37,462 nt of DNA from Actinomycetota bacterium. Lineage in GTDB: Bacteria > Actinomycetota > Thermoleophilia > Solirubrobacterales > Thermoleophilaceae. The notes below the pieces were generated by a model that was given only the letters and a program-made list of their open reading frames with translations, had not been told where the DNA came from and did no database searches. Positions 19,562-30,479 of the stretch are shown here, piece by piece. Each line of letters begins with the position of its first letter. Position 1 is the first letter of the stretch. The position numbers and the translations under genes are program-made. The stretch is from the NCBI GenBank assembly GCA_019246335.1, contig JAFAQQ010000109.1, forward strand, positions 1-37,462, given 5' to 3'.

Positions 19562-21211
19562 CTACTCGGCGCAGAGGAGCCACCACCAGGTCGGCTGACC
19601 GCCCGCGTGGTAGTCGAGCTCGACGCCCGCCGGCAGCGCCCTCTCCACGGCCTCCCGGCCGAGAGGCGCGTCCGCGCCCACGATGCAGGTGAGGACCTCG
19701 CTGCCCTCGGCGACGCTCCGCATCACGGAGCCCAGGGTCGCCTCGGGCTCCCCCCAAGCCACCATCTCCTCCCCCACGTAGCCCACCGCGTCGCCCGTGT
19801 CGAACCGGCCGGCGGGGTCGGGGCGGGCGGCGCCGGCCACGCCCCCGGTCGTCACCGCCTCGAGCTCCCGGGCGAGCGTCGCCGCGTTCTCGGCCGCCGG
19901 CGCGTCGCGATCGAATGCCAAGAGCGCCGGGATGGCCGCCTGCTGGGACCGCGTGGGGACGACGCGGACGCTCTTCTCCGAGAGCTCCGCGGCGCGCTCC
20001 GCCGCCAGGATGACGTTGGGGCTGTTCGGGAGGAGGACGACCCCCCGCGCGGCCGCCGCGTGCACGCCCGCGAGGAGGTCGTAGGTCGAGGGGTTGAGCG
20101 TCGGCCCGCCATCTGCGACCTGCGCGCCGAGGCCCTCGTACAGGGCGGCGATGCCGGGACCGTTGACGACCGCGACGACGCCGCACTCGGCCACCTCGCG
20201 GTCGGGGCCACCGTCCCGGAGCCGCTCGTCGCGCTCGGCCACCTGCTCGCGCATGTCGGCTACGTCGAGGCGCGACACCGACCCCGCGTCCTCGAAGAGC
20301 GCCACGGCGCGGTCCGGCTCGTCGGTGTGGACGTGGACCTTGAGCGTCTGGCGGTCGCCGACCACGAGCACGGAGTCTCCGAGCTGCTCCAGCTCAGGAA
20401 CGAAGCGGCTCGACTCGAGGCCGTCGCCGGTAACCGCGAAGTTCGTGCAGTAGCGGAAGCGGCTTGACTCGTGGCCGTGGGCGTGATGCAGCGCGCCAGC
20501 CGGTGCGGCGTGGTGCTCGAGCTCCGGCGGGCGGTCGCCCCGGAGGGCGCCGATCAGCCCCGCCATGATTACCGTGAGCCCGTACGCCCCGGCGTCGACC
20601 ACGCCCGCCTGCCGCAGTACGTCGAGCTGCTCCGGGCCCCGCTCCACCGCCTCCGTCCCGGCGGCGAGCGCTCGATCGAGCACCTCGGCGAGCAGCTGGT
20701 CCTGGGTGGTGGGCTCGACCCCCTCCGCCAGCCGCCGGGGCTCCATGTGCGCGAGCTCCTGCGCCACCCGGTGCGCCATGGCGCGCACGGCGGTGAGCAT
20801 CGTCCCCTCGGCCGGATCGCGGACCGAGCCATACGCCGCGTCGGCCGCGCGGGCGAGCGCCGCGCTCACGAGGATCGGGTCGACGAGCTCGCCGGGCCGC
20901 GAGGCCAGCTCCTCGGCCGCGCCCCGCACGATCTGCGAGAGGATGACGCCGCTGTTGCCGCGCGCCCCGAGCAGCGCTGCGCGCGCGACCGCGGCCACGA
21001 GCTCGTCGCGGCCCACTTCGTCGATCGGCTGGCCGTTGATCCGGTCGAGCTCGCTCAGGACCGCGCGCAGGGTCATCGCCATGTTGTCGCCGGTGTCGCC
21101 GTCCGCGACCGGGAACACGTTCAGGTCGTTGACCTCCTGGCGGCGGCTCTCGAGCTCCGCGCAGGCCGCGGCGACCGCGCGCCGGAATCGGACGATGCTG
21201 GGGTCCGACAT
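19562..21211 (-). CDS. DAK1/DegV-linked fatty acid kinase-like protein (FakA/YloV family)
   Basis: The protein of about 549 residues has the DhaL/DAK2 nucleotide-binding domain at the N-terminus (NDLNVFPVADGDTGDNMAMTL, with the metal-binding Asp residues; LLGARGNSGVILSQIVRG) and the FakA-type middle and C-terminal domains. FakA phosphorylates fatty acids held by FakB/DegV proteins; no degV is in the window. It lies upstream of recG as in many Gram-positive bacteria. I start at ATG 21211 (MSDPSIVRFRR); the ATG at 21220 is equally possible. The gene is divergent from fmt. Confidence 0.92.
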   Translation of the reverse strand: MSDPSIVRFRRAVAAACAELESRRQEVNDLNVFPVADGDTGDNMAMTLRAVLSELDRINGQPIDEVGRDELVAAVARAALLGARGNSGVILSQIVRGAAEELASRPGELVDPILVSAALARAADAAYGSVRDPAEGTMLTAVRAMAHRVAQELAHMEPRRLAEGVEPTTQDQLLAEVLDRALAAGTEAVERGPEQLDVLRQAGVVDAGAYGLTVIMAGLIGALRGDRPPELEHHAAPAGALHHAHGHESSRFRYCTNFAVTGDGLESSRFVPELEQLGDSVLVVGDRQTLKVHVHTDEPDRAVALFEDAGSVSRLDVADMREQVAERDERLRDGGPDREVAECGVVAVVNGPGIAALYEGLGAQVADGGPTLNPSTYDLLAGVHAAAARGVVLLPNSPNVILAAERAAELSEKSVRVVPTRSQQAAIPALLAFDRDAPAAENAATLARELEAVTTGGVAGAARPDPAGRFDTGDAVGYVGEEMVAWGEPEATLGSVMRSVAEGSEVLTCIVGADAPLGREAVERALPAGVELDYHAGGQPTWWWLLCAE

Positions 21212-21286
21212 CGCCCGCATGTTCTACACCCGCCGGAGGCCGACCGGCATCCGGAACGCCCCTGACCGGCGGCTACGGTGTTCGGC

Positions 21287-25152: not shown

Positions 25153-25769
25153 TCGAGTCCGACGAGCGCGAGCGTCCACGGCAGCGGGGTGCGCACCTCG
25201 AGGACCCGGCCGTGGCGCGTGAGCAGCGAGTGGAACCCGACCTTCGACCAGTGGTTCACGTGACCGGGCGTATCCCCGAGCCGCGACAGGTACGCGCCGC
25301 GCGCCAGGTTGAGCAGCCGCCAGATGGGCTCGCGCGGCACGGATACCAGCAGCCTGCGCCGGGCGACCCTCGACATCTCGGCGAGCACCGCGTCGGGGTC
25401 CGGGACGTGCTCGAGCACCTCGATCCCGGCCACCAGGTCGAACTCGCCCGCGCCGAAGGGAAGCGACTCGGCGCGCGCGGCGGCGAACTCGAGGTTGGCC
25501 CGGCGGCGCGTATCCCATTCGGCCCGCAGAACCGGGTCGTCGAGGTCCACCCCCACCACCCGTCCGGCGCCGAGCCGCTCCGCCCACTCCGAGGTGAGGA
25601 CGCCTTCCCCGCAGCCGACGTCGAGGACCGACTCGGGCGCGGCGCGATCCCACAGCTCGTCGAGGGCCTCCCTGAAGCCGGCGACGAGGCGCCTGGCGAC
25701 CGGATTACCCGATCCGTACTTGTCGTAGAGGTTGCCGGTGGGTACCGCGGCCGCCGGGGCCCCGCTCAC
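25149..25769 (-). CDS. SAM-dependent methyltransferase, class I (methyltransferase 11/12 type)
   Basis: The 206-residue enzyme has SAM motif I VLDVGCGEGVLTSEWAERLG, the acidic end of strand 2 (VVGVDLDD), and GIEVLEHVPDPDAVLAEMSRVA. The N-terminal NLYDKYGSGNPVARRLVAGF is typical of methyltransferases in polysaccharide clusters. The GTG start overlaps the glycosyltransferase stop (GTGA) and its own stop overlaps the flippase TTG, so all three are translationally coupled. It probably methylates a sugar or lipid-linked intermediate; the substrate is not visible. Confidence 0.88.
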   Translation of the reverse strand: MSGAPAAAVPTGNLYDKYGSGNPVARRLVAGFREALDELWDRAAPESVLDVGCGEGVLTSEWAERLGAGRVVGVDLDDPVLRAEWDTRRRANLEFAAARAESLPFGAGEFDLVAGIEVLEHVPDPDAVLAEMSRVARRRLLVSVPREPIWRLLNLARGAYLSRLGDTPGHVNHWSKVGFHSLLTRHGRVLEVRTPLPWTLALVGLD

Positions 25770-26833
25770 AGCTTCAGCGCCTCGCGCCCGCCGTCGCCTC
25801 CGGTCGCGGGCGCCGAGCCGGCGCCGGTCGTGGGCTGGTCGACGGCCGCCGCCGCCGGGCCTTCGCCCGGCTCGTAGTGCGACGGCGCCACGCCGAGGTG
25901 GAGCTCGACCCGCCGGACGCGCTCGAGCACCCGCTGCTGCAGCACGCGGCTTCCGGCCAGGATGTCGCCCACCACGCCGAGGGCGGCGAGCTGCACCGCC
26001 GCCAGGAAGAGCACCGCGCCGAGGATCACGGACTGGATGTGGCCCCTGCCGCCGCCCTCGATCAGGAAGTAGAGGAAGCGGACCCACAGGACGAGCGCGC
26101 CGACGAAGAGGACGAGCGCCGCGGACATGAACACCCGGAGAGGCTCGTACAGCGCGTAGATGCGGAAGATCGAGATCGCGCCCTGGCGCACGTAGGAGGC
26201 CGTCGAGTGGAACAGGCGGGACTCGCGCGTCTTCGCATTCGTGCGGATCGGCGTGTGCTCGACGGCGACAAGTCCCTTGCCGGCCTGGATGATCGTCTCG
26301 AGCGTGTACGTGAACCGCGACACGACCTGAACCTGGATGGCCGCCTCCCGGTTGTAGGCACGAAAGCCGGAGGTCGTGTCCGGGATTTCCGTCTCGGATG
26401 CGCGACGCACGATCGCGCTGCCGACCCGCTGGAGGCGCTTCTTCACTCGGGAGAACTCCTTGACCGAGCCCACGGCGCGGTCACCGACCACCATGTCGGC
26501 GCGGCCGGCGAGGATGGGCTCGACGAGCTTCGGGATGTCGCGAGCGTCGTACTGGTTGTCGGCGTCGGTGTTCACGATCACGTCGGCGCCGAGCTTCAGG
26601 CACGCGTCGAGGCCGGCCTGGAACGCGGCCGCGAGCCCCTTGTGGTTCGTGAGGCGGACGATGTGGTCGACCCCGTGTGCGCGCGCGACCTCAACCGTGC
26701 GGTCCCGTGAGCCGTCGTCGACAACCAGCCATTCGACCGCGTCGAACCCCTCCACCGCGCGCGGGAGGTCGCCGAGGGTCGCGGGCAGCTGAGTCTCTTC
26801 GTCGAAGCAGGGGATCTGGACGATCAGCTTCAT
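25766..26833 (-). CDS. Family 2 glycosyltransferase with C-terminal membrane helices
   Basis: The 355-residue protein starts MKLIVQIPCFDEETQLPATL and has the GT-A motifs VVDDGSRDRT and NTDADNQYD (the DxD metal site). Two C-terminal membrane helices follow (VFMSAALVLFVGALVLWVRFLYF; VILGAVLFLAAVQLAALG), as in polyprenyl-phosphate glycosyltransferases of the DPM1/GtrB type. It probably loads a sugar onto a lipid carrier at the inner membrane. The last 40 residues are low-complexity Pro/Ala/Gly. First gene of the three-gene surface-glycan unit, divergent from ribD. Confidence 0.9.
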   Translation of the reverse strand: MKLIVQIPCFDEETQLPATLGDLPRAVEGFDAVEWLVVDDGSRDRTVEVARAHGVDHIVRLTNHKGLAAAFQAGLDACLKLGADVIVNTDADNQYDARDIPKLVEPILAGRADMVVGDRAVGSVKEFSRVKKRLQRVGSAIVRRASETEIPDTTSGFRAYNREAAIQVQVVSRFTYTLETIIQAGKGLVAVEHTPIRTNAKTRESRLFHSTASYVRQGAISIFRIYALYEPLRVFMSAALVLFVGALVLWVRFLYFLIEGGGRGHIQSVILGAVLFLAAVQLAALGVVGDILAGSRVLQQRVLERVRRVELHLGVAPSHYEPGEGPAAAAVDQPTTGAGSAPATGGDGGREALKL

Positions 26834-26923: not shown

Positions 26924-26932
26924 CGAGTCAAC
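26924..26932. promoter_or_regulatory. Half-site of the ribD upstream palindrome
   Basis: CGAGTCAAC here is identical to the right arm of the perfect palindrome 37 bp downstream. It could be a second, weaker site for the same regulator, or a chance match. Confidence 0.35.
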
Positions 26933-26968
26933 CAGCCCGAATGCAGGAAGAAGCAGCCCCGCTGGTAC

Positions 26969-26988
26969 AGTTGACTCGCGAGTCAACT
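26969..26988. promoter_or_regulatory. 20-bp perfect palindrome upstream of ribD (candidate operator)
   Basis: AGTTGACTCGCGAGTCAACT is perfectly symmetric and sits 21 bp before the ribD ATG, between the divergent glycosyltransferase gene and the riboflavin operon. The TTGAC/GTCAA arms look like a dimeric regulator site. It lies next to a TACAGT hexamer (26966-26971) that could be a -10 box. No FMN riboswitch motifs were recognised in the spacer, so control may be at the DNA level. The regulator is unknown. Confidence 0.6.
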
Positions 26989-27009
26989 TCCGACCCCCGG
27001 AGCTCGAAA

Positions 27010-28137
27010 ATGGCTCAAATAGCAGGATCCGAGCGCGATTTGCGCCACCTGACCCGGGCCATCGAGCTAGCCGCGCAGGCCCGCGGCATGACGAGTCCAA
27101 ACCCGCTCGTGGGAGCGGTCGTGGTCAAGGAGGACAGGGTGATCGGCGAGGGCCTCCACACCGGCGCCGGCGAGCCGCACGCCGAGCGCGCCGCGCTCGA
27201 CGCTTGCACGGAGAGCCCCGACGGAGCCACCCTCTACGTCTCGCTCGAGCCCTGCTGTCACACCGGGCGGACCCCGCCGTGCACCGACGCGATCGTCGAG
27301 GCCGGCGTCCGGCGTGTCGTGATCGCATCCGACGACCCGACGCCGAAGGCGAGCGGGCGCGGCCTCGGCATATTGCGCGACGAGGGCGTCGCGGTGGACG
27401 TCCTCGACGGCGAGGTGTCCGAGCGCGCCCGGCTGCTCAACCAGCCCTTTCGCAAGCACGCGCGGACGGGGAAGCCGCTCGTGATCCTCAAGTGGGCGAT
27501 GACGATGGACGGGAAGGTGGCCACGAGCAGCGGCGACTCTCGCTGGATCTCGGGGAAGGCGAGCCGCGCCCGTGCGCACCGGTGGCGGGCGGAGGTCGAC
27601 GCGGTGGCGGTCGGGATCGGCACGGCGCTCGCCGACGATCCCCTGCTCACCGCGCGTGTGGAGGCCGTCGCGCGGCAGCCGAGGCGGGTGGTGTTCGACT
27701 CCGAGGCGCGGCTGCCGCTCGAGGGGCAGCTTGCACGCAGCCTCGACGACGCCCCCGTCGTCGTGGTCTGCTCGCGGGCCGCGCCGCGCCGCCACGTCCA
27801 GGCGCTCGAGGCGGCGGGCATCGGCACGGTGACCGTCAGCGGGCCGAACGAGACCGCCCGCGTGAAGGCCGCGCTCGACGAGCTCGGCGCGCTCGAGATC
27901 CAGTCGCTCCTCGTCGAGGGCGGGCCCCACCTGGCCGGCGCCCTGGCCGACGCGGGCGAGGTGGACGAGGTGCGCGTGTTCGTCGCGCCCCTCCTCGCCG
28001 GGGGTCGCCGCTCGCGCACCGCCGTGGAGGGCCAGGGCGTGGAGCTGATCCGCGAGGCGGCGCGTCCCGCCTCCGCCACCGAGGTCGAGCGGATCGGCGA
28101 CGACGTGCTGATCTCGGCGCGCCTCAGGGAGTGGTGA
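27010..28137 (+). CDS. ribD: Bifunctional riboflavin deaminase/reductase RibD
   Basis: The 375-residue protein converts the product of GTP cyclohydrolase II to the ribityl-aminopyrimidine phosphate. The N-terminal deaminase domain has the zinc site PHAERAAL and SLEPCCHTGRTPPC. The C-terminal reductase domain begins ILKWAMTMDGKVAT and has the NADPH-binding LVEGGPHLAGAL. ATG 27010 is preceded by GGAG at a 7-nt spacing, so it is favoured over the longer ORF start at 26872. The stop overlaps the ribE ATG by one base. Confidence 0.95.
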   Translation: MAQIAGSERDLRHLTRAIELAAQARGMTSPNPLVGAVVVKEDRVIGEGLHTGAGEPHAERAALDACTESPDGATLYVSLEPCCHTGRTPPCTDAIVEAGVRRVVIASDDPTPKASGRGLGILRDEGVAVDVLDGEVSERARLLNQPFRKHARTGKPLVILKWAMTMDGKVATSSGDSRWISGKASRARAHRWRAEVDAVAVGIGTALADDPLLTARVEAVARQPRRVVFDSEARLPLEGQLARSLDDAPVVVVCSRAAPRRHVQALEAAGIGTVTVSGPNETARVKAALDELGALEIQSLLVEGGPHLAGALADAGEVDEVRVFVAPLLAGGRRSRTAVEGQGVELIREAARPASATEVERIGDDVLISARLREW

Positions 28138-28721
28138 TGTTCACGGGACTGGTGGAGGCCACCGGGACGGTCACACGGGTCGAGCCCGCCCCGGAGGGAG
28201 CGCGGATCGAGGTGCGCGCCGAGCTGGCGCGGCGGCTCGAGCCAGGCGGCTCGGTCGCGATCAACGGGGTCTGCCTCACGGCGACCGCCGTTGGGAAGGC
28301 GGGCTTTGCGGCCGATGTGATGGCCGAGACGCTCCGCCGCTCGTCGCTCGGACCGCTCGCCGCCGGGGACGAGGTGAACCTCGAGCTGCCCGTGGCCGCC
28401 GGGGCCCCGCTCGGCGGGCACATCGTGCAGGGCCACGTGGACGGCACCGGCACGATCCGATCCGTGCGCGAGGAGGGGATCGCGCGCGTCGTCGGCGTCG
28501 CCTGCGATCCGTCGCTCCTGCGCTACGTGGTCGAGAAGGGCTCGATCGCGATCGACGGCGTGTCGTTGACCGTTGCGGGGGTTGATGACGAGTCGTTCGA
28601 GGTCTCGCTCATCCCGGAGACGCTCGAGCGCACGACCCTCGGCGCCGCGGCGCCGGGCCGCCTCGTGAACCTCGAGGTCGACGTCGTCGCGAAGTACGTC
28701 GAGAGCCTGGTGCGCGCGTGA
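28137..28721 (+). CDS. ribE: Riboflavin synthase alpha subunit
   Basis: The 194-residue protein starts MFTGLVEATGTV, the canonical start of riboflavin synthase, and contains two lumazine-binding barrels: GSVAINGVCLTAT in the first and GSIAIDGVSLTVAGVD in the second, with GHIVQGHVDGTG between. It dismutates two 6,7-dimethyl-8-ribityllumazine molecules into riboflavin. The ribD stop and ribE start share one base, and the ribE stop overlaps the ribBA GTG (GTGA). The ORF-track line from 26832 covers it in frame with a shadow extension. Confidence 0.96.
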   Translation: MFTGLVEATGTVTRVEPAPEGARIEVRAELARRLEPGGSVAINGVCLTATAVGKAGFAADVMAETLRRSSLGPLAAGDEVNLELPVAAGAPLGGHIVQGHVDGTGTIRSVREEGIARVVGVACDPSLLRYVVEKGSIAIDGVSLTVAGVDDESFEVSLIPETLERTTLGAAAPGRLVNLEVDVVAKYVESLVRA

Positions 28722-30043
28722 CCGACCACCCGTTCAGCGGCATCGAGGAAGCCCTCGAGGACATCCGCGCCGGGCGGATGGTCGTCGTGTGCGACGCCGA
28801 GGACCGCGAGGACGAGGGCGACCTCGTGATGGCCGCCCACCTGGCCACGCCGGAGGCGATCGACTTCATGGCGCGCGAGGGGCGCGGCCTCATCTGCCTG
28901 GCGCTGACGCCGGACCGGTGCGACGAGCTGGGCCTCGACCTCATGTCCGCGAAGAACGAGTCTGCCTTCCAGGGCGCGTTCGACGTCTCGATCCGGGCGG
29001 GCGACGGCGACCGGGCTCACACCATCCAGGTCGCGATCGATCCGTCCGCTCGGCCGGAGGACCTGGTCCAACCCGGGCACGTCGTACCCCTCCGCGCACG
29101 GCCCGGCGGCGTGCTGGAGCGCGCCGGCCAGACGGAGGCCGCCGTCGACCTCGCGAGGCTCGCCGACCTCAACCCCGCCGGCGTCGTCTGCGAGGTGAAG
29201 AACGAGGACGGCACGATGGCGCGCGTCCGCGACCTCGCCGCGCTGAGCAGCGGTCACGGCCTGCGGATGATCACGGTCGCCGACCTCATCGCGTACCGCC
29301 GCCGCCACGACAAGCTGGTCGAGCGCGTGGTGGAGGCCAGCCTCCCGACCGAGTTCGGCGAGTTCAACGTGGTGGGGTTCCGCTCGCTGGTCGACGACAA
29401 GCACCACGTGGCGATGGTCAAGGGCGACGTCGCGGGCGAGGAGGACGTGCTGGTGCGTGTGCACTCCGAGTGCCTGACCGGCGACGTGTTCCACTCGCTC
29501 CGGTGCGACTGCGGCCAGCAGCTCGAGAGCGCGCTGAGGCTGATCGAGGCCGAGGGGCGCGGCGTGCTCCTCTACCTGGCCCAGGAGGGTCGCGGGATCG
29601 GGCTGCTGAACAAGCTCCGCGCGTACCGGCTCCAGGAGGAGGGGCTGGACACGGTCGACGCCAACCTGGAGCTCGGAATGCCCGCCGACCTGCGCGACTA
29701 CGGGATCGGCGCCCAGATCCTGGTGGACCTCGGGCTGTCGAGCATCCGGCTGCTCACCAACAACCCCAGGAAGATCGTCGGGCTCGAGGGCTACGGCTTG
29801 ACCGTGACCGACCAGCTCCCGATTCAGCACGCGGCGACCGAGCACAACCGCGACTACCTGCGGGCGAAGCGCGACCGCCTCGGCCACCTCCTCCACCACC
29901 AGGGCCTCGCGCTCGACGAGGAGATGATCCACGAGGAGCGCTCGCGCGACCGGGCGCGCGGCCGCGACGCCCGCGCGACCGGGGCGATGCGGCCGGCTCC
30001 GCTGGGCCATGGGGACGAGCCCCCGGAGCGACCCGGTGGCTGA
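28718..30043 (+). CDS. ribBA: RibBA: GTP cyclohydrolase II fused to a degenerate DHBP synthase domain
   Basis: This 441-residue protein has an N-terminal RibB-type domain (about 1-205) and a C-terminal RibA domain (about 210-400). RibA looks intact: the zinc ligands lie in SECLTGDVFHSLRCDCGQQ, followed by EGRGIGLLNK. RibB keeps DAEDREDEGDLV and the PGHVVPLRA stretch but lacks the GVTTGxSAADR loop: only GDG separates IRA from DRAHTI. GHTEA is GQTEA, with Gln138 in place of the catalytic His. DHBP synthase activity is therefore doubtful. Start is GTG overlapping the ribE stop. The C-terminal 40 residues are low complexity and overlap ribH. Confidence 0.93.
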   Translation: MTDHPFSGIEEALEDIRAGRMVVVCDAEDREDEGDLVMAAHLATPEAIDFMAREGRGLICLALTPDRCDELGLDLMSAKNESAFQGAFDVSIRAGDGDRAHTIQVAIDPSARPEDLVQPGHVVPLRARPGGVLERAGQTEAAVDLARLADLNPAGVVCEVKNEDGTMARVRDLAALSSGHGLRMITVADLIAYRRRHDKLVERVVEASLPTEFGEFNVVGFRSLVDDKHHVAMVKGDVAGEEDVLVRVHSECLTGDVFHSLRCDCGQQLESALRLIEAEGRGVLLYLAQEGRGIGLLNKLRAYRLQEEGLDTVDANLELGMPADLRDYGIGAQILVDLGLSSIRLLTNNPRKIVGLEGYGLTVTDQLPIQHAATEHNRDYLRAKRDRLGHLLHHQGLALDEEMIHEERSRDRARGRDARATGAMRPAPLGHGDEPPERPGG

Positions 30044-30479
30044 GGATCCCGCCGCGCCGGTCTACGCGATCGTGGCGTCGCGCTTCTACGAGGAGCTCGC
30101 GAACCGGCTGGTCGAGGGCGCCGAGCGGGTGTTCCGGGAGGCCGGCGCCGGTTACGAGGTGCACCCCGTCCCCGGCGCGTTCGAGCTGCCGCTCGCGGCG
30201 AGCTACTGCGCGGGGTCCGGCCGCTACGTCGGCGTTGCCTGCCTCGGCGCGGTGATCCGAGGCGAGACCGACCACTACGAGTACGTCTGCTCCGAGGCGG
30301 CGCGCGGGATCGCCCGGGTCTCGCTCGACACCGGAGTCCCGTGCGCCTTCGGCGTGCTCACCGTCGAGAGCATGGAGCAGGCCGTGGCGCGCGCCGGCGG
30401 TGGCACGCGGCACACGGGCGAGGACGCCGCGCGGGCGGCGCTGCGGATGGTGGAGCTGCGGGCGCAGCTCCACGGCTGA
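30036..30479 (+). CDS. ribH: 6,7-dimethyl-8-ribityllumazine synthase
   Basis: The 147-residue protein condenses the pyrimidine with DHBP to give lumazine, the RibE substrate. Motifs are VPGAFELPLAA, GAVIRGETDHYEYV and FGVLTVESMEQAVARAGG (family GVLTxxNxEQAxxRAG). I choose GTG 30036, which has GGAG 7 nt upstream (30025-30028), over ATG 30009, which has no clear site. It overlaps the ribBA stop by 8 nt. The last codons and the stop are part of a 25-bp repeat present three times. Confidence 0.93.
   Translation: MAEDPAAPVYAIVASRFYEELANRLVEGAERVFREAGAGYEVHPVPGAFELPLAASYCAGSGRYVGVACLGAVIRGETDHYEYVCSEAARGIARVSLDTGVPCAFGVLTVESMEQAVARAGGGTRHTGEDAARAALRMVELRAQLHG

What the first reader, a model, noticed from the sequence alone, without database searches (positions are those of the whole stretch)
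26924..26988. Perfect 20-bp palindrome instead of an FMN riboswitch before ribD
AGTTGACTCGCGAGTCAACT lies 21 bp before ribD, with an identical half-site CGAGTCAAC upstream. Riboflavin operons are often under FMN riboswitch control, but none of its conserved motifs were recognised here. This suggests a transcription factor controls ribD, and perhaps the divergent glycan genes too.
Basis: partly seen in the sequence, partly recalled or inferred. Interest (0 to 1): 0.5.

Follow-up and report, generated by a model that had tools for sequence, protein, structure and literature searches.

The report
Fatty-acid repressor site controlling riboflavin operon
The palindrome in front of the vitamin B2 (riboflavin) genes is almost certainly a binding site for a fatty-acid-breakdown repressor of the FadR type, which would tie the making of flavin cofactors to the flavin-hungry enzymes that burn fatty acids.

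Summary
In detail: AGTTGACTCGCGAGTCAACT (26969-26988) is a perfect palindrome 21 bp before ribD, and no FMN riboswitch is found in the window or, above cut-off, in any of 61 genomes of the order. The palindrome is the core TTGACT-SRYS-AGTCAA. It occurs 0-7 times per genome (169 sites in 61 genomes; mirror control 1). Of 149 sites inspected, 134 lie directly upstream of etfB, acyl-CoA dehydrogenase, thiolase or 3-hydroxyacyl-CoA dehydrogenase genes, a nitrilase-TetR operon, or ribD. That TetR protein resembles the fatty-acid repressor FadR of Bacillus, carries the site in front of its own operon, and is missing in a family that has no sites. At ribD the core is kept (at least 11 of 12 bases) in 20 of 28 genomes of the window's family and 7 of 12 of another, while flanks are near-random. 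It sits just downstream of a predicted extended -10 box. Best reading: an acyl-CoA-responsive FadR-like repressor controls the whole ribD-ribE-ribBA-ribH operon, supplying FAD/FMN when beta-oxidation is switched on. Binding and ligand are inferred, not shown.

The parts
26969..26988 (.). Perfect 20-bp palindromic operator; conserved core TTGACT-CGCG-AGTCAA at 26971-26986
26963..26971 (+). Predicted extended -10 promoter element TGGTACAGT, abutting/overlapping the operator; predicted transcription start about 26977-26979 (centre of the palindrome)
   Evidence: Sequence; raised conservation at -12 to -4 relative to the core across 14 f1 ribD sites
26999..27002 (+). Likely Shine-Dalgarno GGAG of ribD
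   Evidence: sequence
27010..28137 (+). ribD (deaminase/reductase), first gene of the controlled operon
   Evidence: Pfam RibD_C and dCMP_cyt_deam_1
28137..28721 (+). ribE (riboflavin synthase alpha, two lumazine-binding domains); start approximate
   Evidence: Pfam Lum_binding, 2 stretches
28718..30043 (+). ribBA (DHBP synthase + GTP cyclohydrolase II)
   Evidence: Pfam
30009..30479 (+). ribH (lumazine synthase), the only copy found in the genome
   Evidence: Pfam; single PF00885 hit in own genome
26924..26932 (+). Extra half-site CGAGTCAAC; not conserved, probably chance
25766..26833 (-). Divergent family-2 glycosyltransferase gene; not a conserved neighbour of the operator
   Evidence: Pfam Glycos_transf_2; neighbours differ in relatives

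Best explanation
The palindrome is an operator of a FadR-like TetR-family repressor of fatty-acid beta-oxidation (in this genome the protein at contig C17:8485-9129, minus strand). A dimer sits on TTGACT-N4-AGTCAA immediately downstream of the ribD -10 box and blocks transcription of ribD-ribE-ribBA-ribH. When fatty acids are available, acyl-CoA binds the repressor and releases it. This induces the electron-transfer flavoprotein, the acyl-CoA dehydrogenases, thiolase and hydroxyacyl-CoA dehydrogenase, the repressor's own operon and, in this clade, riboflavin synthesis, so FAD/FMN supply rises together with the flavoenzymes that need it. Shown here: the site, its conservation, its shared occurrence with beta-oxidation/ETF genes and with the TetR gene, and its place relative to promoter-like sequences. 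Inferred: binding by this TetR, repression, acyl-CoA as ligand, and the cofactor-supply rationale. Repression must be partial, because ribD and ribH appear to be single-copy.
For: (1) Core TTGACT-N4-AGTCAA: 4 exact sites in this genome and 0 in control; 53 of 61 order genomes have sites, 169 in total against 1 for the mirror pattern. (2) Of 149 sites inspected, 137 lie within 260 bp upstream of genes encoding acyl-CoA dehydrogenase (46), EtfB (27), thiolase/3-hydroxyacyl-CoA dehydrogenase (22), the nitrilase-TetR operon (22), RibD (17) or a CitE/MaoC pair (3) (domains confirmed for G000 proteins and one nitrilase fragment). (3) The TetR protein is FadR-like: best PDB matches are B. subtilis FadR 1vi0/3whb (profile E 2e-25) and Bacillus FadR-type 5gp9/5gpc; Pfam TetR_C_4 YsiA-like; best NCBIfam hit is FadR. 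Its operon is preceded by an exact site in 20 genomes, with near-matches in at least 13 more; in G005/G019/G041, where no nitrilase gene lies directly upstream of the TetR gene, the site is 64-82 bp before the TetR gene itself. (4) Sites and TetR co-occur (Fisher p 9e-5, not corrected for relatedness); family f4 lacks both. (5) At ribD: exact core in 18 of 28 f1 and 3 of 12 f3 genomes, 11/12 bases in 2 and 4 more; null for at least 11/12 in 150 bp about 2e-5. f3 ribD sites (GACC centre) are identical to f3 acyl-CoA dehydrogenase sites. (6) Core identity among 14 f1 ribD sites 96%, flanks 32-36%. (7) Recognition-helix residues VAYGLVYHYF invariant in 33 TetR orthologues from f1-f3. (8) Thermus FadR binds a similar palindrome (TTRNACYNRGTNYAA) before 3-hydroxyacyl-CoA DH/thiolase/acyl-CoA DH (PMC5597230).
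Against: No binding or expression data. Four genomes with sites gave no TetR orthologue (G009, G017, G045 are 74-87% complete, but G026 is 99%). In G000 itself the site before the nitrilase-TetR operon is degenerate (TTGATTGACCAGTCGG). The ribD site is absent in 8 of 28 f1, 5 of 12 f3 and all f2 genomes tested, so control of ribD is labile. The f1 ribD sites favour a CGCG centre, whereas most other sites have a GA or GG half-site centre, leaving room for a paralogous regulator. The TetR falls below the NCBIfam FadR cut-off (97 of 200 bits).
Confidence: 0.83

Rival explanations
1. A different transcription factor, for example a paralogous TetR or the two-HTH MerR-type regulator encoded near the nitrilase-TetR operon, binds the motif; the FadR-like TetR is only a neighbour.
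For: A MerR-type gene lies directly next to the operon in G000 and within about 1-9 kb upstream in several relatives. MerR-type LiuR proteins regulate related pathways (own knowledge). G026 has sites but no TetR found.
Against: The site directly precedes the TetR operon in 20 genomes and follows the TetR gene when the nitrilase gene is not directly upstream of it. The MerR gene lies at varying distances. MerR proteins act from within a long -35/-10 spacer (own knowledge), whereas the ribD and acyl-CoA dehydrogenase sites lie downstream of the -10-like box.
Confidence: 0.1
2. A riboflavin-specific regulator uses a ribD-only palindrome.
For: The CGCG centre is commonest at f1 ribD sites.
Against: The same core, including CGCG-centred copies, lies before acyl-CoA dehydrogenase, thiolase and hydroxyacyl-CoA dehydrogenase genes (G007, G009, G013, G055), and f3 ribD sites are the same as f3 beta-oxidation sites.
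Confidence: 0.04
3. The palindrome acts as RNA (hairpin, attenuator or unrecognised riboswitch) in the ribD leader.
For: A palindrome can fold as a hairpin, and ribD operons are commonly under FMN riboswitch control.
Against: No RF00050 hit. At etfB and thiolase promoters the same palindrome lies upstream of the -10-like box, so it would not be transcribed. The ribD leader is predicted to be about 10-30 nt, and in G008/G013 the start codon is 1 nt after the core.
Confidence: 0.02
4. Chance palindrome with no function.
For: Short palindromes do occur.
Against: Conserved before ribD in two families with near-random flanks, and part of a site set with a mirror control of 1 against 169.
Confidence: 0.01

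Closest known systems
FadR of Bacillus (TetR family; PDB 1vi0, 3whb/3whc, 5gp9/5gpc)
   Same: TetR fold with YsiA-like C-terminal domain, closest solved relatives; target classes (ETF, acyl-CoA dehydrogenase, thiolase) and autoregulation match the fatty-acid degradation regulon.
   Different: About a quarter identity; below the NCBIfam equivalog cut-off; operator is TTGACT-N4-AGTCAA; the riboflavin operon is an additional target.
FadR of Thermus thermophilus HB8 (PMC5597230)
   Same: Palindromic operator TTRNACYNRGTNYAA with ACT/AGT half-sites; targets 3-hydroxyacyl-CoA dehydrogenase, thiolase and acyl-CoA dehydrogenase.
   Different: 15-bp instead of 16-bp core; the paper does not mention riboflavin or etf genes.
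FadR of Sulfolobus acidocaldarius (PMC6449355)
   Same: TetR-family acyl-CoA-responsive regulator of fatty-acid genes with a 16-bp dyad motif.
   Different: Archaeal, no flavin gene mentioned.
FMN riboswitch (RFN element, RF00050)
   Same: Controls ribDEBAH operons in many bacteria.
   Different: Not found here; an FMN-independent, DNA-level operator takes its place.
RbkR of archaea (own knowledge; no open paper read)
   Same: A DNA-binding protein controlling riboflavin genes.
   Different: RbkR is a riboflavin kinase fusion; here the control is by a catabolic repressor.

Membership tests
FadR-type TetR repressor regulon (as in Bacillus/Thermus) | Regulator with TetR_N HTH domain | tested here: met
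   PF00440, 61.6 bits
FadR-type TetR repressor regulon (as in Bacillus/Thermus) | FadR/YsiA-like C-terminal domain | tested here: met
   PF08359 25.9 bits against cut-off 21; FadR structures are the best PDB matches
NCBIfam NF053878 (Bacillus FadR equivalog) | Score above curated cut-off of 200 | tested here: not met
   97 bits; so FadR-like, not that equivalog
FadR-type TetR repressor regulon (as in Bacillus/Thermus) | Operators before beta-oxidation and ETF genes | tested here: met
FadR-type TetR repressor regulon (as in Bacillus/Thermus) | Operator before the regulator's own operon | tested here: met
   20 exact plus at least 13 near matches
FadR-type TetR repressor regulon (as in Bacillus/Thermus) | DNA binding released by long-chain acyl-CoA | not testable with these tools
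   needs protein
FadR-type TetR repressor regulon (as in Bacillus/Thermus) | Operator overlaps promoter (repression) | tested here: inconclusive
   Operator just 3' of -10-like box at ribD/acyl-CoA dehydrogenase genes, over a -35-like TTGACT at etfB/thiolase; promoters are predicted only
FMN riboswitch (RF00050) | Covariance-model match upstream of ribD | tested here: not met

The most novel reading that the evidence does not exclude
In one bacterial order the complete de novo riboflavin operon has been brought, without an FMN riboswitch, under the acyl-CoA-responsive repressor of fatty-acid degradation: feed-forward cofactor supply, in which flavin synthesis follows the expected demand of ETF and acyl-CoA dehydrogenases rather than flavin levels.
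Probability: 0.72. Interest if true: 0.65.

Novelty: new variant of a known kind. Interest (0 to 1): 0.56.

Why it matters
Bacterial riboflavin synthesis is usually seen as controlled by flavin-sensing RNA, and where the riboswitch is missing (for example Mycobacteriaceae, Bacteroidaceae and Cyanobacteria, PMC3766115) the control is unknown. Here a concrete, testable replacement is named: a fatty-acid catabolic repressor whose other targets include the flavoproteins ETF and acyl-CoA dehydrogenase. It would be an example of cofactor supply tied to the pathway that uses it. It also gives a predicted beta-oxidation regulon for an order of mostly uncultured soil actinobacteria. Five literature searches found no report of a riboflavin operon in a FadR-type regulon; a ChIP peak of the Pseudomonas TetR PA3973 at nrdR-ribD (PMC9736018) is the only faint parallel. 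Subscription journals were not searched.

Tried and rejected
FMN riboswitch: not found in the window or above cut-off in 61 genomes. Exact 18-mer as regulon probe: one exact copy, too strict; TTGACT-N4-AGTCAA was needed. The first coordinates for ribD were one base off (frame error); the ATG is 27010. A seeming palindrome CTACCCTCGGGTAG before ribD in family f4 was considered as a second operator, but it varies and contains the TACCCT -10 type seen at other promoters here, so it was dropped.

Full report
Observation. The palindrome AGTTGACTCGCGAGTCAACT is at 26969-26988, perfect, 21 bp before the ribD start codon at 27010. Pfam shows that the genes behind it form a complete riboflavin operon, ribD-ribE-ribBA-ribH, with touching or overlapping frames. 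The half-site CGAGTCAAC at 26924 is real but absent in the two nearest relatives. No FMN riboswitch is found in the window or, above the cut-off, in any of 61 genomes of the same order, while the search works in controls.

From palindrome to regulon. The exact 18-mer occurs once in the genome, but the relaxed core TTGACT-N4-AGTCAA occurs four times, with none for the mirror control. In 61 relatives 53 genomes have it, 169 sites in total against one for the control (sums of the table). I read 149 sites with their flanks. 137 have, within 260 bp downstream, a gene for acyl-CoA dehydrogenase, EtfB, thiolase, 3-hydroxyacyl-CoA dehydrogenase, a nitrilase followed by a TetR gene, RibD, or (3 sites) a CitE/MaoC pair. 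The labels were made with references taken from the same set; Pfam confirms the domains for the G000 proteins and for a nitrilase fragment from G008. Twelve sites were not assigned. The refined core TTGACT-SRYS-AGTCAA is largely confined to the order: 8 of 116 genomes from other families of the class have one site each, and in at least seven of these eight the neighbouring gene is again an acyl-CoA dehydrogenase.

The regulator. Among 13 TetR proteins of the genome one, at C17:8485-9129, is FadR-like: best PDB matches are Bacillus FadR structures (1vi0, 3whb, 5gp9), its C-terminal domain matches the YsiA-like family, and the best NCBIfam hit is FadR, below its cut-off. Orthologues (57-88% identity in most, down to 52%) are in 51 of 61 genomes. 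An exact site precedes the nitrilase-TetR operon at about 0.85-0.97 kb from the TetR match in 20 genomes, and near-matches in others; in genus g4, where no nitrilase gene lies directly upstream of the TetR gene, the site stands 64-82 bp before the TetR gene itself. Family f4 has neither sites nor the TetR. Co-occurrence gives Fisher p 9e-5, uncorrected for relatedness. Recognition-helix residues are invariant across f1-f3.

ribD as a member. ribD has an exact core in 18 of 28 testable f1 genomes and 3 of 12 f3 genomes, and an 11/12 core in 2 and 4 more; none in 13 f2 and 5 f4 genomes. The chance of at least 11/12 in 150 bp is about 2e-5 in shuffles. Among 14 f1 sites the core is 96% identical pairwise and the flanks 32-36%, with a second raised block TGGTAnnnT directly upstream (the core value is biased upward because exact sites were chosen). 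That block reads as an extended -10, which puts the predicted start of transcription inside the palindrome. At acyl-CoA dehydrogenase genes the site is likewise downstream of a -10-like TATCCT/TACCCT; at etfB and thiolase genes the TTGACT of the site itself reads as a -35 with a -10-like hexamer further on. Both layouts suit a repressor, and the second cannot be an RNA element. The gene opposite ribD differs between relatives, so the operator belongs to ribD.

Mechanism and limits. The likely mechanism is repression by a FadR-like dimer, lifted by acyl-CoA, so that flavin synthesis rises with ETF and acyl-CoA dehydrogenases. Binding, repression and ligand are inferred from homology and site position. 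RibH is single-copy in this 94%-complete genome, as is full-length RibD, so repression cannot be total; a second RibBA-like gene without a site lies at C43. A MerR-type regulator near the TetR operon is the main rival. G026, 99% complete, has sites but no TetR found.

Comparison and novelty. Thermus FadR has a similar operator and the same core targets, without flavin genes mentioned; Sulfolobus FadR has a 16-bp dyad. No paper found links a riboflavin operon to a FadR-type regulon; a Pseudomonas ChIP peak at nrdR-ribD for the TetR protein PA3973 is a faint parallel. FMN-riboswitch-free riboflavin operons elsewhere are of unknown control. I rate it a new variant of a known kind. The order is probably Solirubrobacterales (Thermoleophilia), judged only from the titles of related records.

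Noticed in passing
L258:4124-4831 (G000:C17:10123-10830, minus strand): A MerR-family-like regulator with apparently two HTH regions lies beside the nitrilase-TetR operon, and within about 1-9 kb in several relatives.
   Followed up: partly
L293 (G000:C43:18264-18833): A second RibBA-like protein (DHBP synthase domain) outside the rib operon, with no FadR-like site upstream; it may provide FadR-independent basal synthesis.
   Followed up: partly
L081, L210, L214, L216 (f3 genomes G051, G057, G053, G032): A recurring variant TTGACTTTGTAGTCAA, in G051 before a gene that looks like a Rieske-type dioxygenase; its odd centre suggests a separate regulator.
   Followed up: no
window 19562-21220, minus strand: A DAK2/FakA-like protein (possible fatty acid kinase subunit) is encoded a few kilobases from the FadR-like-regulated rib operon.
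   Followed up: no
L066-L070, L291 (family f4 ribD upstream regions): CTACCCTCGGGTAG-like near-palindromes before ribD in genomes that lack the TetR and its sites; probably -10 sequence, but a replaced operator is possible.
   Followed up: partly
L101 (G031:C12:72483-72631): Sub-threshold FMN riboswitch match (25 bits, cut-off 66) in one f2 genome.
   Followed up: no
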